A program made the translations under genes and the position numbers. From a virus, in the IMG/VR virus record IMGVR_UViG_3300027714_000009, positions 1-64,000 of that record: DNA of 64,000 bases; one strand, given 5' to 3'. Numbering within the stretch: the stretch's first letter is position 1; each line of letters begins with the position of its first letter. The notes beneath the pieces are model-generated. The model saw nothing but the letters and a program-made list of their open reading frames with translations. It did no database searches and had not been told where the DNA came from. Shown one piece after another: positions 27,338 to 40,224 of the stretch.

Positions 27338-28756
27338 CTAACTATTACTTCTTTTGAGCATAGAACGTAACTTGTCGTGGCCCTGTATTGTGTTCTCCAC
27401 AACACTATTTTCAGCAATATTCTTTTCTTGATGTGATACTTTGTTTTGTGCTTTAATTTTCTCAAACATAGCACTAGGTTGATTCATTGTAGTTCCTTGA
27501 TCATCTTCGTCTAGATCCTCAATACGCAATCCTGCAATATCAAATTTTAAGTCTACTTTTTGTCCAACACCACTACTACTACGTGTCTTCATAAACTGTA
27601 CTTGGTAACGCCCACGTTCACGCATTGCTTGGCTTGTAAATATACCAATAACGTTGTCTGCTGTTTGAATCTTACTTATACCACCTGCAATGTGGGAGTG
27701 ATCAAATTCTACTTCCTCTACTGCCGCTCTGTTTAACTGAGATGCTGTTGCAAACAAATAATCATATTCTACTGCAAAGTTACGTAATTCTTCTGATACA
27801 AATTTATCTTTAATAAACAAATCACTTGGATTTACTTTATTTTGTGCTGGCATCATTAGATCCAAGTAATCAATACATACTGCATCTATTTTGACATCAC
27901 TTTTAATTTCAAATTCTCTAATATAACTTGTAATAGCATTAATTGTAATACCATTTGGCAATTGTACAATCTGTAGCTTACCTGCTTTCTTACCTTGCAT
28001 ACGTACTTTTAAATCTACGTCAGCGGCGTTCTTAAATACTGATCTTGTGTCCATGCCAGTAATCATACTGTCTAATCGCATACTAGATAATTCTTCACTA
28101 AGCTCTAGTGTAATATATACTACATTCAATCCTGCAATTGACCAATTCAGTGCTAAGTTCTGTAAGAACAAACTCTTACCACCACCCGATGGAGCTGCAA
28201 ATATATTTAATTCGCCTCTGTTAAATCCACCATATAGTTTGTTATCAATATCTTTCCAACCTGTGCTTGTGCCACCACGTTGATTACGTACACGTTCAAT
28301 ACGTGCCGCTGGATCTTCCCAATAGTCTGTACCCATATGTTTAGCAAGTCCAATATTGACTGCATCTTTAATCATACGTTCTACTGGTCCGTAGTCACCT
28401 TTTTCTAACAAGTCTGCACTTGTTAAGATTGCACCTTCTAATGCTTTATGTCTACAAAATACTTCAAACTCATCTATAAACCATTTCTTGTGTCTGTCAT
28501 CTACATCTTTTAGTGGCTGTAACTCTAGCCCTGTTGTAGCTACAATTTGCTCCAATGTAGGTAACGCACTATATCCCATAGAATGTTCTTGTATAAACTC
28601 AACACCCTTGCGTAGTTCTCTATCAAAATACAAAGGATCAAGTATTCCATTTACTCTAGCGAATAAGTCTTGGTCCTGAGATAAAAACTCAACAAATAAT
28701 CGTTGTAAGTCTATGCCATATTCTTTTGCTTGTACATTTTCATCTTTTTTCATCAT
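27338..28756 (-). CDS. gp41: Replicative DNA helicase (gp41, DnaB-like)
   Basis: 472 residues. An N-terminal domain of about 170 residues is followed by a RecA-type motor: Walker A FAAPSGGGKSLFL near residue 195, VVYITLELSEEL, Walker B AVCIDYLDLMMP and TASQLNRAA. It unwinds the lagging-strand template as a hexamer with the primase. The ATG at 28756 is chosen over a TTG at 28762: it overlaps the primase stop as ATGA. A TTGACA-N17-TACAAT promoter inside the primase gene may give it a private transcript. Confidence 0.95.
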   Translation of the reverse strand: MMKKDENVQAKEYGIDLQRLFVEFLSQDQDLFARVNGILDPLYFDRELRKGVEFIQEHSMGYSALPTLEQIVATTGLELQPLKDVDDRHKKWFIDEFEVFCRHKALEGAILTSADLLEKGDYGPVERMIKDAVNIGLAKHMGTDYWEDPAARIERVRNQRGGTSTGWKDIDNKLYGGFNRGELNIFAAPSGGGKSLFLQNLALNWSIAGLNVVYITLELSEELSSMRLDSMITGMDTRSVFKNAADVDLKVRMQGKKAGKLQIVQLPNGITINAITSYIREFEIKSDVKIDAVCIDYLDLMMPAQNKVNPSDLFIKDKFVSEELRNFAVEYDYLFATASQLNRAAVEEVEFDHSHIAGGISKIQTADNVIGIFTSQAMRERGRYQVQFMKTRSSSGVGQKVDLKFDIAGLRIEDLDEDDQGTTMNQPSAMFEKIKAQNKVSHQEKNIAENSVVENTIQGHDKLRSMLKRSNS

Positions 28757-29766
28757 TTGCAATACTTTCTCATAATTAATTCAATTTTAGTTGCATTACT
28801 TTCTGCACTATTTAATATACTCTTTATTGTATACAATCTTCCGTATTTTGTCAAGGCATCTGCGGCATCTTTGCAATCTTTCCATTCTGGAAATGCTACA
28901 CTCCACCCATGCTTTATTGCTGCCTTACACATTAACTTTCCTGCATCATCTGCGTCTGGTAATATTATAATATGTTTCTGTAAGCTGTGTAGTATATCTG
29001 CTTGTTCATCATTTATATTATTACTACCTATTGCACACCCATCAGTTACTATTGCATCAAGTTGTCCTTCAGTTACAATAACAACATGCTTGTCTGGAGT
29101 CTGTCTATCTAACCCATACACAAAGTCTTTCTTAGGTTGCTGATTGTAGTACTTGGGCATACCATCTGGAATACTATCTCCTGCCCATCTTGCTGTGTAT
29201 CCTACTACTTTATTTTTATATGTAAATGGTAATATGAAACGCTTGTTGACTCTACCATTTGTTTTACTATTACTATACATGAATCTAGGATCAGTTACAT
29301 CAAACCCACGTCTAGTTAAATATTCTACTGCTTCCGACCAATCTGCTGTAGGCTCGTCATGTAGCATAAATGGTTTAGTATCTTCTGGCAGCTCTTTTAA
29401 GTCCCAATCAATAATTAAGTTTTTACGTTTCTCTGTTTTTATTAATAAAGTTGCTACATCTTGTTCACGTAACAATTCAAGTTGAATACGATTAATATCA
29501 TTCTCATCTGCACCTAATGTAGTTAGTAATTGTTTTAATCTAGATGTTACTTTGCCCTGTGGTGCCCATCCAGTTTTAAATGTGCAATTAAAGCAATTAT
29601 ATTGAAACTTTTCTACGTCAAATAAGAATCCACCTCTGCCTTTAGTATCAGGTCGTGCTTGACCATTTCTAGTACACATTGGGCAATTGCCAGATATCCA
29701 TCCACTAGGGCTTGATCGCCAGTTAGCCGGTACCAGAGTTCTTACGTAGTCGTTCATCAAAGTCAT
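28753..29766 (-). CDS. gp61: DNA primase (gp61, DnaG-like)
   Basis: 337 residues. A zinc ribbon at C28, C31, C58 and C61 (CPMC and CFNC) is followed by a TOPRIM domain: VIVTEGQLDAI carries the catalytic Glu and HIIILPDADDAG the DxD pair. It makes RNA primers with gp41. The promoter at 29773-29801 puts its predicted +1 on the A of the chosen ATG; there is no SD, so a leaderless mRNA is likely. Confidence 0.93.
   Translation of the reverse strand: MTLMNDYVRTLVPANWRSSPSGWISGNCPMCTRNGQARPDTKGRGGFLFDVEKFQYNCFNCTFKTGWAPQGKVTSRLKQLLTTLGADENDINRIQLELLREQDVATLLIKTEKRKNLIIDWDLKELPEDTKPFMLHDEPTADWSEAVEYLTRRGFDVTDPRFMYSNSKTNGRVNKRFILPFTYKNKVVGYTARWAGDSIPDGMPKYYNQQPKKDFVYGLDRQTPDKHVVIVTEGQLDAIVTDGCAIGSNNINDEQADILHSLQKHIIILPDADDAGKLMCKAAIKHGWSVAFPEWKDCKDAADALTKYGRLYTIKSILNSAESNATKIELIMRKYCK
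28826..28854 (-). promoter_or_regulatory. Sigma70 promoter inside the primase gene
   Basis: TTGACA (28854-28849), 17-base spacer, TACAAT (28831-28826). Predicted +1 is about 63 bases before the helicase ATG, so helicase could be made in excess of primase. Confidence 0.6.
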
Positions 29767-30672: not shown

Positions 30673-31044
30673 ATGCAAACAAAACATCAGAAACTATTAG
30701 ACGAATATCCATTCTTAACTGTCATAGCATATGCCGGAAACGAATACCTTGGGATTATCCAAAATATAGATAACCATGTTGCTAGCTTATATGTGTACGA
30801 TCGCTTAACTGATACCCAAGAGAGAATTAAGTTCTTGGAATTAGGCGAAGAATGGTGGTGGGAAACGAATAGAAAATTACCCATCAACATTGCATTACTT
30901 AATAGATGGAATTACCAATACGCAATTCAAAGTTTTAATGTAAAACAAATGGAAGTTATTGTAGGACCAGAAGTAAGACTAAGCAACAGCATCACCAAGC
31001 GGATTAAAAGACGTAGTATTAACCTTGTAAAGAAAAACCACTAG
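30673..31044 (+). CDS. Conserved phage protein, RNA-binding-like small fold
   Basis: 123 residues. FLTVIAYAGNEYLGIIQNID then VASLYVYDRL gives an Sm/SH3-like strand pattern, followed by GEEWWWETNRKLPI and a basic tail (SITKRIKRRSINLVKK). The only plus-strand gene between 2 and 60 kb. A late box 6 bases before the ATG implies a leaderless late transcript. Its 3' end overlaps the convergent gene by 26 bases. Function unknown. Confidence 0.7.
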   Translation: MQTKHQKLLDEYPFLTVIAYAGNEYLGIIQNIDNHVASLYVYDRLTDTQERIKFLELGEEWWWETNRKLPINIALLNRWNYQYAIQSFNVKQMEVIVGPEVRLSNSITKRIKRRSINLVKKNH

Positions 31045-31603
31045 CTAACATATTTAATTGCAATACTATAGCAACTGCATATGCGTGAGCATGTGCTTTT
31101 TTAAAAAAGTATTCATCTGTGCTAGGTTTAACCCATACATCAGCGTTAATAGCGTCCCAACCCTTATTAAGTAAGTGACGCTTCGCCGGTCTGATTACTG
31201 CAAGCACTGCCGCTAGCTGTTCTACACTAGTAGGCTTCATTGTATTAATAATATCAAAGTGCTTATGTATGTGGAAACATTGTTCTACTACTTCTCGATG
31301 TTCTAGTAACTCCCACATAGGATCCATTGCAAGCAAATCATCTAGCTTCTTCTTAGTATCAATAGATTTATATAATCCAACGTTAATAACATCAATTTTA
31401 AAGTAACCCATAGACTCTGCTTCTTTATGATCTATTGTGCTAAGTCCATTAAAAGGATTACTTGGTATTTCATGGAAGTACACACCAGTGTTATGTTTTA
31501 CTTGCTTATGTTCGCGAGCAATCATTGCAGGTGTGCCGTTAATAAGGTTTAATAGCTTATCTCTATTAGCTACATCAATGTCAATATCTGTGTTAACTAT
31601 CAT
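31019..31603 (-). CDS. Mini DnaE-like protein (C-family polymerase palm/finger remnant)
   Basis: 194 residues. Four blocks match, in order, blocks of bacterial DNA polymerase III alpha: VNTDIDID (D8, D10; compare PDFDIDF), HNTGVYF then MGYFKIDVINVGLYKSI (D71; compare GLLKFDFLGL), SVEQLAAVLAVIRPA (126-140) and FFKKAHAHAYA (166-176; compare FNKSHAAAY). All three catalytic Asp positions seem kept in a protein about one sixth of the usual size. The match is by eye. ATG at 31603 has AGGA 8 bases upstream; the longer frame to 31651 lacks an SD. Activity unknown. Confidence 0.55.
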   Translation of the reverse strand: MIVNTDIDIDVANRDKLLNLINGTPAMIAREHKQVKHNTGVYFHEIPSNPFNGLSTIDHKEAESMGYFKIDVINVGLYKSIDTKKKLDDLLAMDPMWELLEHREVVEQCFHIHKHFDIINTMKPTSVEQLAAVLAVIRPAKRHLLNKGWDAINADVWVKPSTDEYFFKKAHAHAYAVAIVLQLNMLASGFSLQG

Positions 31604-31685
31604 TTGGGTCTTCCTTATCCATTTTATATAACATATATACTGGTAATACAAAACATGCTAATATATAAATCAATGACCATATCAT
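31593..31685 (-). CDS. 30-residue single-span membrane peptide
   Basis: MIWSLIYILACFVLPVYMLY followed by a charged tail KMDKEDPNDS. The start overlaps the stop of the zinc-finger gene as ATGA and its end overlaps the start of the DnaE-like gene, so it fits a coupled chain with no gap. GGAG lies 11 bases upstream. One membrane helix, N-terminus probably inside or outside not decided. Function unknown. Confidence 0.55.
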   Translation of the reverse strand: MIWSLIYILACFVLPVYMLYKMDKEDPNDS

Positions 31686-32353
31686 ATTTTCATTTGCTCC
31701 ATAATTTCTGTTACAAATCTACCATCCTGTGGATTGACATTCATTCTACGTTGCCAATAATCAACATCTAAATAATCTGTTATCATTTTTAGTTGTTCGC
31801 CACTCATGTTATCAATTAAATCTTGTGCCGCTGTACTTGTAAACAATACCCACGGACTAATTTTGCCACTGCATATATGAAATACTGCAAGTGCTGGTGC
31901 TATTGTATGAAAGTATGTATTATATGTTGTGTTGTTTTCTTCTGCCCACTTCTGTAAAAACAATACAGTACGCTCAACACCTCTTTCACACGATTCGTTG
32001 TTTTGTCGTTCTTTCATCCAAGCCGCAAAATGCTTATCTCTACACCAATGGTCTAATCTTATTGAATTCTTTAATAGCCAAGTTGTGTAAGACGGTACAT
32101 CATCAATACCAATGTCCCTACAATAATAACCATACTTACAGAACGCAATATAATATTGACTTTTTGCAAACTCCTGGTAGCTTTTTTCATTCTTTGCATT
32201 TGTTCCTATTTTATAGAATAACTGATAACCTCTAAAACCAAGTTGTACATGCTTTTCGTCTTTTTGCATGTGCCTACGCTTCTGTTCACATAAATGAACA
32301 ACTAGTGTATTCTCTTTCTTGAATGTTTTAGAACAGTATTCACATTTAAACAT
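31682..32353 (-). CDS. C2H2 zinc-finger protein
   Basis: 223 residues. The N-terminus is a single C2H2 finger (FKCEYCSKTFKKENTLVVHL, then a C and HxxxH-like H), unusual outside eukaryotes but recurrent in T4-like phages. The remainder is helical and rich in Trp, Tyr and Cys. It abuts the 152-residue gene. DNA or RNA binding is likely; target unknown. Confidence 0.7.
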   Translation of the reverse strand: MFKCEYCSKTFKKENTLVVHLCEQKRRHMQKDEKHVQLGFRGYQLFYKIGTNAKNEKSYQEFAKSQYYIAFCKYGYYCRDIGIDDVPSYTTWLLKNSIRLDHWCRDKHFAAWMKERQNNESCERGVERTVLFLQKWAEENNTTYNTYFHTIAPALAVFHICSGKISPWVLFTSTAAQDLIDNMSGEQLKMITDYLDVDYWQRRMNVNPQDGRFVTEIMEQMKI

Positions 32354-33549: not shown

Positions 33550-35001
33550 TTATTGCCATTCTACTTTTTCTATAGAGAATGGATAATTGGCTTCTTTATA
33601 AAACTTCTTACGCTCGGTTAAGTGTTTTTTACTAAATTTTGCTGTACTTGTAATGTCCCATATTTGAACATTGTCTTTATCTTCAGCTTTACGTATTCCA
33701 CGTCCAATACTTTGTATTACTCTAACAAAACTCTTACCGGGCTCTATTAGTACTAAGTTAAAAATACGTGGAATGTTAATACCAACTGCCGCAACTCCGT
33801 ATGTTGCTACAACAATTTGGTTTGTTCCTTCATTAATCTCATCATAATGATCTTTACGTGTTGTAGTTTTCATCTCACCACTTACAAAGTTTGCATGTGG
33901 AAGGTTTTCACAAATCATTTGTCCACCCTTGATACGATCTACTAATACTAGTGTGTTTCCGCTTTTACTAATCTTATCAATTAGTCCACTAATATGTTTT
34001 ATACGTGCTTTGTCTGTAGTTAAATAACTTAACTCACTTTGATAATTATTGTAGACTGCAAACTCTTTCATTTGCACTACGTTAACATGACATTGACTTA
34101 ATACATCCATCTCCTGCAACGTGCTTGCACTTAGCTTGTTAGTTACTTCACCTAGACATGCTTGTAAGCAAACCTTTTCATGTTCTGCCTTTGGTATAGT
34201 TCCTGTTAGTCCCCACCTTAAAGGAATCTTTGCAAACTCCTTAGTCAATAGTTCTTTTAATACGTCTGCTTTAGCTTGATGAACTTCGTCTACAATCACA
34301 CATACTACGTCTTCTGCAAACTCTGCTAAACTTAATTCGCTTTGTCCTTCTCTAAATCTTTTCTTAATACTATTCAAACTCTGCCACGTACAAATTGTAT
34401 GTGTTTTGCCTAGTTCTTTTTTGTCACCGTAATACACGCCAACATCTAATCCTAAGTTCTCATAATCTGCCGCTGTTTGTTTTACCAAGTCTTTGTTTGG
34501 TACAATAACAATTGACCTTCCATACTTTTCTACACGTTCACTAAGTGCCGCTGTAATAAGAGTTTTACCTGCACCTGTTGCAATTTCTTGCAAGCAATGT
34601 GGAGTTTCTAAATACTTGTTTACAATCTCAATCTGATAATCACGTAGTGTAACTGGCTGTCCTACCATTTGGTGTTTTTCAGGCCACAGTTTATGTTGAA
34701 ATGTTGATTCATCTACTACATTAAAATCAAGTTCATATTTTGTTCTTAAGTCTTCAATGTCAATGTCATAACCTTCATTCATTATAATGGGAAGCACTTT
34801 GTCAAGTAAGTTAGTATATGTTACACCACCTACTGTAAAGTAACTTTGACATCCATCCCATCTACCCAACTTATATGCTGGCACGTGGAATGCGTATGGA
34901 AGAAAGAACTTTAATTCCTTCTCACATTTTCTTCGAGTGTTAACGTCAAGACCTTCGATCTTGCAGTTCACTTCATCTTTTAATACGATTTTACATTTCA
35001 T
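33550..35001 (-). CDS. uvsW: UvsW-type SF2 helicase
   Basis: 483 residues. A short N-terminal domain is followed by SF2 motifs: QEIATGAGKTLITA (Walker A), VCVIVDEVHQAK (DEVH), LTGTIPK, VVATYGVAAVGINI and QSIGRGIRK (motif VI). T4 UvsW remodels R-loops and branched DNA and switches replication mode. The ATG at 35001 is chosen over a GTG at 35016 because the promoter -10 overlaps that region and its +1 falls on this A; the mRNA is probably leaderless. Confidence 0.92.
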   Translation of the reverse strand: MKCKIVLKDEVNCKIEGLDVNTRRKCEKELKFFLPYAFHVPAYKLGRWDGCQSYFTVGGVTYTNLLDKVLPIIMNEGYDIDIEDLRTKYELDFNVVDESTFQHKLWPEKHQMVGQPVTLRDYQIEIVNKYLETPHCLQEIATGAGKTLITAALSERVEKYGRSIVIVPNKDLVKQTAADYENLGLDVGVYYGDKKELGKTHTICTWQSLNSIKKRFREGQSELSLAEFAEDVVCVIVDEVHQAKADVLKELLTKEFAKIPLRWGLTGTIPKAEHEKVCLQACLGEVTNKLSASTLQEMDVLSQCHVNVVQMKEFAVYNNYQSELSYLTTDKARIKHISGLIDKISKSGNTLVLVDRIKGGQMICENLPHANFVSGEMKTTTRKDHYDEINEGTNQIVVATYGVAAVGINIPRIFNLVLIEPGKSFVRVIQSIGRGIRKAEDKDNVQIWDITSTAKFSKKHLTERKKFYKEANYPFSIEKVEWQ

Positions 35002-35007
35002 ACTATT

Positions 35008-35036
35008 ATAATACACTAATTGTTAAGGAAAGTCAA
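35008..35036 (-). promoter_or_regulatory. Sigma70 promoter giving a leaderless mRNA
   Basis: TTGACT (35036-35031), 17-base spacer, TATTAT (35013-35008). Six bases separate the -10 from the UvsW ATG. The overlapping TATAAT three bases downstream would need a 20-base spacer. Confidence 0.7.
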
Positions 35037-35082: not shown

Positions 35083-35961
35083 CTATACAACAGCAACCCT
35101 ACGCATACATGTAACTTCTGCAGTACGTTTCCACTTCTCAGAACCGAAGCTCTTTTTCAAGTCTGCTAATTTAGTAACCATACGCAATGATATTTCACGC
35201 ATCTTTTCTTTGTTACTAATCATAAAGTCCATTATGTCTGTTTCTTCTTCTGCTGTAAAGTCATACTCATTAAGCATGCCATCTGCAACAATCTGCTTAC
35301 AACGTAATACTTTTTCACGTGTAGTATCCATTGTAAGATCTAAGTAATGACAACGTGACATGATTGCCGCTAAGTGATCTTTAATTTTACCACGTACATT
35401 ATCAAACTTAAGGTTAGTAATAAAAATTACACTACCTTGGAATTCAAAAGTATCTGGAATACCTTCCCTACGTAGTAATGCACTATCTGTATTCCAGCAT
35501 AGCTTACGCTTCTTACATGAGTCAAGTGCTGCCTTTAGCAAGTTAAGCGATGTCTCATCATACAATACTGTATCACAATCATCTAACACAAGAACACTGT
35601 TTTTGTCTGCATTATTGTAAAGTACTTTGTACAAACCAATTGCACTACTAGCACCTTTAATAACTTCAAAACGTAATTTATTGTTAGCAAGGACATCAAA
35701 CAAACTATTCTTTTCTAGAACTTGTTCAACACCATATGACTTACCAACTCCTGGAGGACCCGTTACAACCATACCACGTACAACACCATCAATTGATGCT
35801 TGTGTCATATCGTCTAGTATTTGGAAACGTTCACGCATACGTTCAATAATCTGAGCGTCTGTTTCTTTGGGATTGTCTACAACGTTATTTGGAAGTACTT
35901 CAATAATTGTCTCGCCTTTACGATCTTTACGAGCTTTCTTAAGTTGCATTGTTTTCGACAT
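35083..35961 (-). CDS. AAA+ ATPase
   Basis: 292 residues. Walker A TGPPGVGKS (67-75), Walker B VLVLDDCD, sensor 1 IFITNLKFDN, then MSRCHYLDL as an arginine-finger region and a C-terminal lid. It is distinct from the gp44 clamp loader and resembles phage AAA+ proteins of unknown target. A promoter with the palindromic spacer (36014-36042) drives it and a terminator follows directly, so it forms a single-gene early unit. GGAG precedes the ATG. Confidence 0.85.
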   Translation of the reverse strand: MSKTMQLKKARKDRKGETIIEVLPNNVVDNPKETDAQIIERMRERFQILDDMTQASIDGVVRGMVVTGPPGVGKSYGVEQVLEKNSLFDVLANNKLRFEVIKGASSAIGLYKVLYNNADKNSVLVLDDCDTVLYDETSLNLLKAALDSCKKRKLCWNTDSALLRREGIPDTFEFQGSVIFITNLKFDNVRGKIKDHLAAIMSRCHYLDLTMDTTREKVLRCKQIVADGMLNEYDFTAEEETDIMDFMISNKEKMREISLRMVTKLADLKKSFGSEKWKRTAEVTCMRRVAVV

Positions 35962-39147: not shown

Positions 39148-39165
39148 CATAATGTTTATTTTAGC

Positions 39166-40224
39166 TTATTGCTTTCGGTTACGAATTGCTGCCAAAATGT
39201 CCTGGGCACTCGGTGCATCAGTAGTAGTTACTTCGGGTGCCGCTGCTGCCATTGCCATTGCTGGTTCTGGAGTTGCTACTGCCGCCGGAGGCGCTACTGG
39301 TGCCGCTACAGGTGCAACTGGTGCAGGTGCTGTAGGAACTGCTTCTACTATTGGTGCAGGAGCAATTGGTGCTGTTGGAGCAATTGGTGCTGCCGGAGCG
39401 GGTGCTGGTGCTGGTGCTGTACCTTGTGCAGGTGCATCAACTCCATATGGACGATAGAACGTTGCAAAACGTGCTGGATCGTACAATTGCCCATCAACAC
39501 TAGCTTCAAACATTTCGAAGATAGCATTTAGTGCTTCAGCATCTGGCTTCTTAGGAAGATAATCATTTAGATTATACAAGCCATGTGTTGCAATTGCATC
39601 ACGTTCTGCTTGATCTAAACTACGCTCCCTACGAGCCCAATTCGATGTTGAGTAGTCAGCATATTGACCCTTGGTAGATTTCTTAATTGTGAAATCAGTA
39701 CCAGCTTCATAGTCTGTTGGAATTTCCTGAAACTCAGGATCCATCAGTGCTGAACTAATGATCTTATAGATCTGTGGTGAGATTACGAAACGCCTAATAG
39801 GATTCTCAGGTACTGAGTCTTCCTGCATTTCACTTTGTGGTACAAAGCCTTGGAAAATATACGAACGCTTTTTCCAATACTTACGACCCATGTCTTCCAT
39901 AGATGGATCTTTAAACCAAGGACGAATTTCTGCGTGTACAGGACATTGATCGCCCCACATTTCCACACAAGGAACTTGTACTGTTACTGGTTTATTTTCG
40001 TCTCCACCTTTTACTCCTGGAAACTGTAGACGAATCATTTGACGTTCTTTCCAAAAGAAAGTGTTGTCTTCGTCTGCGTCTGGGAGGAATCGCAACGTGG
40101 CTGAAGTGCCTTCTGGAATGTTCCAGTGTGCGAATATTGCGTTGTCGCCGCCGCTATTACTAGAGCCTGAACTCTTTTTATCTTGTGCCTGTAATTTTGC
40201 ACGGATGTCTGCTAAAGATGCCAT
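39166..40224 (-). CDS. gp32: Single-stranded DNA-binding protein gp32
   Basis: 352 residues. The N-terminal SLADIRAKL resembles the LAST cooperativity motif; a core with CVEMWGDQCPVH supplies a Cys/His zinc site; a Pro/Ala-rich linker of about 80 residues precedes the C-terminal SAQDILAAIRNRK, which replaces the acidic tail of T4 with a mixed one. It coats ssDNA in replication and recombination. The 103-base leader has two hairpins (see 40225-40327). Confidence 0.88.
   Translation of the reverse strand: MASLADIRAKLQAQDKKSSGSSNSGGDNAIFAHWNIPEGTSATLRFLPDADEDNTFFWKERQMIRLQFPGVKGGDENKPVTVQVPCVEMWGDQCPVHAEIRPWFKDPSMEDMGRKYWKKRSYIFQGFVPQSEMQEDSVPENPIRRFVISPQIYKIISSALMDPEFQEIPTDYEAGTDFTIKKSTKGQYADYSTSNWARRERSLDQAERDAIATHGLYNLNDYLPKKPDAEALNAIFEMFEASVDGQLYDPARFATFYRPYGVDAPAQGTAPAPAPAPAAPIAPTAPIAPAPIVEAVPTAPAPVAPVAAPVAPPAAVATPEPAMAMAAAAPEVTTTDAPSAQDILAAIRNRKQ

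What the first reader, a model, noticed from the sequence alone, without database searches (positions are those of the whole stretch)
31019..31603. 194-residue protein carrying all three catalytic-Asp blocks of DnaE-type polymerase
VNTDIDID, MGYFKIDVINV, SVEQLAAVLAVIRPA and FFKKAHAHAYA appear in the same order as in bacterial DNA polymerase III alpha, with the spacing collapsed. T4-like phages normally use a B-family polymerase, so this may be a domesticated palm/finger fragment: an active minimal nucleotidyltransferase, or a decoy binding the host clamp or primer-template.
Basis: partly seen in the sequence, partly recalled or inferred. Interest (0 to 1): 0.75.

Follow-up and report, generated by a model that had tools for sequence, protein, structure and literature searches.

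The report
Half of a split phage polymerase
The gene encodes the catalytic half of a stripped-down bacterial-type (DnaE-like) DNA polymerase that large phages make as two separate small proteins next to their own T4-type polymerase; this split enzyme was predicted from genomes in 2021 but, as far as I could find, never tested in the laboratory.

Summary
A 194-aa gene (31019-31603, minus strand) carries the collinear motifs of bacterial DNA polymerase III alpha. Profile-profile comparison (97.3%, E 7e-11), an AlphaFold2 model (pLDDT 90) whose eleven best PDB matches are all Pol III alpha, and a Pfam fingers-domain hit in an orthologue show true C-family homology. It is not a lone palm fragment or decoy. 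It is the C-terminal half (DxDxD strand, third Asp, fingers) of a trans-split miniature polymerase. The N-terminal half (about 170 aa, GRGS nucleotide-binding motif) ends where DnaE residue 393 lies. It is encoded 11 kb to more than 180 kb away on the same strand, beside the clamp-loader gene, while this half lies between uvsW and primase-helicase. Of 80 annotated phage records listed with this half, 78 also hold the other. The catalytic residues are invariant and dN/dS is about 0.05-0.10. The C-family Arg-Arg...GKK segment and the PHP, OB and C-terminal domains have no counterpart. The partner is missing from this 90-kb record, most likely because the contig ends too early. Iyer et al. (2021, PMC7824862) already described the split enzyme, so this is a new (marine) member of a known, untested kind.

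The parts
31019..31603 (-). CDS of the C-terminal (catalytic/template-binding) half of a split minimal C-family DNA polymerase, 194 aa, PHROG 11778
31574..31588 (-). DIDID motif, residues D6-D10 (E. coli DnaE D401, D403, D405 by alignment)
31484..31495 (-). HNTG, residues 37-40 (DnaE H511-A-G-G); His invariant
31391..31399 (-). K69-I-D71, the third catalytic Asp (DnaE K553-F-D555); K and D invariant
31181..31192 (-). RPAK, residues 138-141 (DnaE R639-P640-G-P); R, P and K invariant
31079..31105 (-). FKKAHAHAY, residues 167-175 (DnaE FNKSHSAAYA 756-765, fingers)
30673..31044 (+). convergent 123-aa ORF overlapping the 3' end of the polymerase gene; PHROG 11637, unknown function; homologues in the same convergent place in the related phages compared, except the distant Slicko01, which has an unmatched convergent ORF there
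31682..32353 (-). conserved upstream neighbour (PHROG 11058) with an N-terminal invariant C-x2-C-x12-H-x-C motif; candidate accessory protein
28753..29766 (-). DNA primase (T4 gp61-like), conserved downstream neighbour
27338..28762 (-). DnaB-like replicative helicase (T4 gp41-like), conserved downstream neighbour
33550..35016 (-). UvsW-like helicase, conserved upstream neighbour

Best explanation
The gene makes one subunit of a two-subunit, miniature C-family DNA polymerase of about 360 residues in total. The other subunit ('part 1', not in this record) supplies the first palm helices and the GRGS motif that in DnaE helps hold the incoming nucleotide. This subunit starts at the DxDxD strand and supplies the metal-binding Asp residues and a reduced fingers region. 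Shown: homology, complementarity, co-occurrence, purifying selection. Inferred: the halves assemble and catalyse. Because part 2 is encoded with uvsW and primase-helicase and part 1 with the clamp loader, and the fully searched carriers of both also have a family-B polymerase, I think it most likely makes short stretches of DNA as an auxiliary replisome polymerase, for example extending primers before hand-off to the B-family enzyme or filling gaps during UvsX/UvsW recombination-dependent replication. The role is inferred (about 0.35 for primer hand-off).
For: Homology of part 2 to DnaE: hhalign 97.3%, E 7e-11; PDB profile hits exclusively Pol III alpha; Foldseek PDB ranks 1-11 all Pol III alpha, E 8e-4, prob 1.00; Pfam fingers domain PF17657 hits part 2 of phage XacN1 above its cut-off. 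Partner: a second small ORF matches PF07733 positions about 16-98 of 260 in all ten phage genomes checked; hhalign 99.1%, E 7e-18, ending at DnaE residue 393 of 1160, just before PDFDVDF at 400. The two do not overlap on DnaE, and neither model is confident at the junction (part 1 C-terminus and RGS loop pLDDT <50, part 2 first ten residues 67). Co-occurrence: 78 of 80 listed phage records with part 2 also have part 1, as do contigs G001, G021 and G022. Catalytic columns invariant in 78 sequences; dN/dS 0.05-0.10. Conserved neighbourhoods. A published analysis reached the same split-enzyme conclusion (PMC7824862).
Against: No biochemical data were found. The LRRAMGKK segment, conserved in C-family polymerases (E. 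coli 708-715), falls in the roughly 110 residues missing from part 2, so normal dNTP handling may be impaired unless another residue substitutes. Thumb, PHP, OB and clamp-binding regions have no recognised counterpart. No complex of the two halves could be modelled here. The whole-model superposition is loose (TM 0.41-0.43, rmsd 14 A over about 194 columns). Part 1 is not in the window's own 90-kb record, and IMG/VR contigs G018 and G020 have part 1 without part 2; both may be fragments.
Confidence: 0.72

Rival explanations
1. The two halves assemble and bind nucleotide and DNA, but because part of the fingers is lost the enzyme is a specialised nucleotidyltransferase or very distributive repair polymerase (end-filling, lesion bypass, recombination-coupled synthesis) rather than a replisome polymerase.
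For: Loss of the RR...GKK segment and of all processivity and proofreading modules; neighbourhood with UvsW, and often UvsX, in the conserved cluster.
Against: The position next to primase-helicase and the clamp loader is at least as constant as that next to recombination genes.
Confidence: 0.15
2. One reading: part 2 alone is an active minimal nucleotidyltransferase.
For: All three Asp blocks and fingers motifs sit in one chain.
Against: The GRGS motif and first palm helices are in a separate co-conserved protein; the DxDxD end is among the least confident parts of the stand-alone model (pLDDT 67).
Confidence: 0.05
3. One reading: a catalytically dead decoy or regulator that binds the host clamp or primer-template.
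For: Some small phage proteins act this way (own knowledge); nothing in the results points to it.
Against: Catalytic residues invariant across 78 divergent sequences; dN/dS 0.05-0.10; the same gene in phages of very different hosts; the partner subunit keeps its own catalytic-core motif.
Confidence: 0.06
4. Intron or intein split: the two pieces are one gene interrupted by a mobile element and rejoined by splicing.
For: Split DnaE with trans-splicing inteins exists in cyanobacteria (own knowledge).
Against: Both halves begin and end cleanly with their own start and stop and no extra intein-like sequence; the same split point in every genome; the halves lie 11 kb to more than 180 kb apart.
Confidence: 0.02

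Closest known systems
Split minimal DNA polymerase III alpha of group 2.2 jumbo phages (Iyer et al. 2021, Viruses 13:63, PMC7824862; PHROGs 11778 and 11127)
   Same: Same two-gene split into an N-terminal NTP-binding and a C-terminal Mg/template-binding piece at distant loci; accompanies a family-B polymerase; no other Pol III domains. The window protein matches PHROG 11778 at E 2e-62.
   Different: The window is an uncultured, apparently marine lineage and its record holds only the C-terminal half. Relatives extend to a 141-kb circular phage (Slicko01) with the two genes 11 kb apart. I found no description of the gene neighbourhoods in the passages read.
Bacterial DNA polymerase III alpha / DnaE (E. 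coli DnaE, Thermus Pol III alpha)
   Same: Palm Asp triad, GRGS (in the partner), HAGG, RPGP and FNKSHSAAYA motifs in order; fold match in the PDB.
   Different: Two chains of about 170 and 194 aa instead of about 1160; no PHP, OB, clamp-binding or C-terminal domains recognised; most of the region of E. coli 643-750, including LRRAMGKK, is absent.
Full-length phage-encoded DnaE (e.g. Pseudomonas PB1-like, Streptomyces and Mycobacterium phages)
   Same: C-family catalytic core carried by a phage.
   Different: A single long chain; in the window's relatives the split form sits beside a family-B polymerase instead.

Membership tests
C-family DNA polymerase (Pol III alpha) | Catalytic Asp triad (E. 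coli D401, D403, D555) in order | tested here: met
   D6, D8, D71, Asp in every covering sequence
C-family DNA polymerase (Pol III alpha) | Pol III alpha fold of palm and fingers | tested here: met
   AF2 pLDDT 90.4; Foldseek PDB ranks 1-11 all Pol III alpha; overall superposition loose (TM about 0.4)
C-family DNA polymerase (Pol III alpha) | GRGS nucleotide-binding motif in the first half of the palm | tested here: not met
   Absent from this protein; present in the separate partner. Met only for the pair, so this protein alone is not filed as a polymerase.
C-family DNA polymerase (Pol III alpha) | Conserved R(R/K)...K segment of the fingers (E. coli 708-715) | tested here: not met
   No counterpart in the profile alignment
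C-family DNA polymerase (Pol III alpha) | Template-directed DNA synthesis | not testable with these tools
   Needs an assay
Split minimal Pol III alpha of jumbo phages (Iyer et al. 2021) | C-terminal piece homologous to PHROG 11778 | tested here: met
   E 2.3e-62 over residues 4-187
Split minimal Pol III alpha of jumbo phages (Iyer et al. 2021) | Separate N-terminal piece in the same genome | tested here: inconclusive
   Not in the 90-kb fragment. Present in the closest long relative G001, 117 kb away on the primase side, beyond the end of this record.
Split minimal Pol III alpha of jumbo phages (Iyer et al. 2021) | Family-B polymerase in the same genome | tested here: inconclusive
   Not in the fragment; present in relatives G001 and G002 and all complete phage records tested
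Split minimal Pol III alpha of jumbo phages (Iyer et al. 2021) | Jumbo genome (200 kb or more) | tested here: inconclusive
   Record is 90 kb; close relatives are 204 and 221 kb and possibly incomplete

The most novel reading that the evidence does not exclude
The two proteins together are the smallest known C-family DNA polymerase, an obligate heterodimer of about 360 residues that works as a dedicated second replisome polymerase (primer extension or lagging-strand role) beside a B-family replicase, linking the primosome (part 2) and the clamp loader (part 1). It would be an independently usable model of the C-family core.
Probability: 0.3. Interest if true: 0.78.

Novelty: new member of a known kind. 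Interest (0 to 1): 0.48.

Why it matters
Bacterial chromosomes are copied by C-family polymerases of roughly 1,000 residues or more; a two-piece version stripped to the palm and part of the fingers would show what the minimal catalytic core is. It would also be a natural mixed replisome with B-family and C-family enzymes. The neighbourhoods found here (one half with primase-helicase, the other with the clamp loader) give directly testable partners. Because the split enzyme was already predicted in 2021, the value lies in extending and sharpening that prediction, not in discovering it.

Tried and rejected
Pfam scan of the single protein: no family. Single-sequence phmmer against the PDB: nothing convincing. 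Hhalign against E. coli DnaE alone was weak (probability 8.7%) and became strong only with an 11-member DnaE profile. Search for A-family polymerase in the relatives: none. A DnaQ-like exonuclease as obligate partner: rejected, present in 8 of 15 records and absent from the marine ones. A separate fingers gene: none; the only PF17657 hit was part 2 itself. Cellular origin: only 13 matching contigs in 84,980 bacterial and archaeal genomes, 12 titled MAG and one a metagenomic bin, probably misbinned phage.

Full report
What is there. The finding is a real gene on the minus strand, 31019-31603 (194 aa plus stop). Pfam has no family for it, but PHROG 11778, already labelled 'DNA polymerase', matches at E 2e-62. 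Relatives occur in 90 annotated phage records (all under 60% identical) and in at least 588 IMG/VR stretches. In 84,980 bacterial and archaeal genomes only 13 contigs match, 12 titled MAG and one a metagenomic bin, probably misbinned phage. It is a phage family.

Is the polymerase resemblance real? Yes. With a family profile, the only PDB sequences at E<=10 are seven DNA polymerase III alpha chains, with motif matches in the right order. Hhalign against an alignment of eleven diverse DnaE/PolC proteins gives 97.3%, E 7.4e-11. AlphaFold2 with 78 family members gives pLDDT 90.4; Foldseek ranks Pol III alpha 1st to 11th in the PDB (best E 8e-4, prob 1.00), and the named top hits in the viral library are phage DNA polymerases of the DnaE type. 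The Pfam fingers model PF17657 independently hits the orthologue in phage XacN1 above its cut-off. By alignment D6, D8, D10 and D71 correspond to E. coli D401, D403, D405 and D555; that D401, D403 and D555 are the catalytic triad is established knowledge. D71, K69, H37, R138, P139, K141 and H171 are invariant in 78 divergent sequences, and D6, D8 and D10 are Asp in all 76 that cover them. Estimated dN/dS against relatives is 0.05-0.10 (synonymous sites near saturation, so rough).

It is half an enzyme. Scanning complete relatives for PF07733 found a second small ORF (about 170-180 aa) in all ten phages and in the 204-kb contig G001, matching only profile positions about 16-98 of 260. That protein ends in ...GVGRGSSVASY...DSIKYELDIKEFLK, the counterpart of DnaE ...GPGRGSGAGSLVAY...LEFDLLFERFLN. 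Hhalign gives 99.1%, E 7e-18, with its last residue at DnaE 393; PDFDVDF starts at 400, and the window protein starts with its version of that motif. The two proteins are complementary, non-overlapping pieces of one palm. Foldseek of the part-1 model (pLDDT 84) puts Pol III alpha at ranks 1-4, without a significant E-value (best 0.36). Of 80 part-2 records listed by accession, 74 also appear in the part-1 lists and four more were found by profile, giving 78; one 109-kb unverified record lacks part 1 and one was not tested. The genes are always apart, on the same strand in every pair compared: about 11 kb in Slicko01, 15 kb in XacN1, 31 kb in 121Q, 182 kb in Atu_ph07. No intein-like sequence was seen at the junction.

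Why the partner is not in the window. The record is a 90-kb fragment. In G001 (part 2 80% identical, same orientation and neighbours) part 1 lies about 117 kb away on the primase side; only 31 kb exist on that side here. G002 (221 kb) also lacks part 1, and its end falls about 10 kb beyond the B-family polymerase gene, whereas in G001 part 1 lies about 19 kb beyond it. Two contigs with part 1 only (184 and 192 kb) are probably fragments too, but that is not shown.

Neighbourhood. The order uvsW, PHROG 11279, a variable ORF, PHROG 11058, part 2, the convergent PHROG 11637, an ORF resembling a virion protein, primase, helicase is kept in the window, G001, G002 and most complete phages compared; XacN1 and the more distant Slicko01 keep it only in part. 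Part 1 sits about 1-5 kb upstream of the gp44-like clamp loader wherever checked: 121Q, GAP32, Paride, Phosso and seven uncultured contigs. In Slicko01, a circular 141-kb genome, the clamp loader, part 2 and primase/helicase lie together and part 1 is about 11 kb upstream. The fully searched phage records that hold both parts also encode a family-B polymerase; none of the 17 records searched encodes an A-family enzyme.

Mechanism. Shown: homology, split, complementarity, co-conservation, purifying selection, replication-gene context. Inferred: the halves assemble into one active site and synthesise DNA. Likely features: low processivity (no clamp-binding or OB regions recognised) and no own proofreading; a DnaQ-like exonuclease is present in only 8 of 15 records. 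Open weakness: the LRRAMGKK segment, conserved in C-family enzymes, falls in the part that is missing. I rate assembly into a C-family core at about 0.9, DNA polymerase activity at about 0.65, and a primer-extension or hand-off role at about 0.35.

Relation to what is known. Iyer and colleagues (PMC7824862; [quoted passage not shown] The window gene is a member of that kind. I found no experimental study in the open-access library, which lacks most subscription journals and all bioRxiv preprints. Additions here: wide occurrence in uncultured viruses, a 141-kb carrier, constant neighbourhoods of both halves, residue correspondence including what is lost, and a candidate accessory protein.

Noticed in passing
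30673-31044 (+): A convergent ORF (PHROG 11637, unknown function) overlaps the 3' end of the polymerase gene by 26 bases; homologues keep the same convergent position in marine, enterobacterial, Pseudomonas, rhizobial and Salicola phages.
   Followed up: partly
31682-32353 (-): PHROG 11058 protein with an invariant N-terminal C-x2-C-x12-H-x-C (zinc-finger-like) motif, conserved one or a few genes upstream of part 2 in the relatives compared; possible accessory subunit.
   Followed up: partly
L244 (Slicko01, OQ508956.1): A 141-kb circular, non-jumbo phage carries both polymerase halves only about 11 kb apart, and its family-B polymerase matches lie in two ORFs (578 and 322 aa).
   Followed up: partly
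35083-35961 (-): AAA-type ATPase (PHROG 1250, weak DnaC-like helicase-loader match) beside uvsW; among the loci compared, matched only in relatives G001 and G002.
   Followed up: no
39152-39457 (+) and overlapping ORFs: Low-complexity Ala/Gly-rich ORFs lie opposite the Ala/Pro-rich tail of the ORF at 39166-40224; probably not genes.
   Followed up: no
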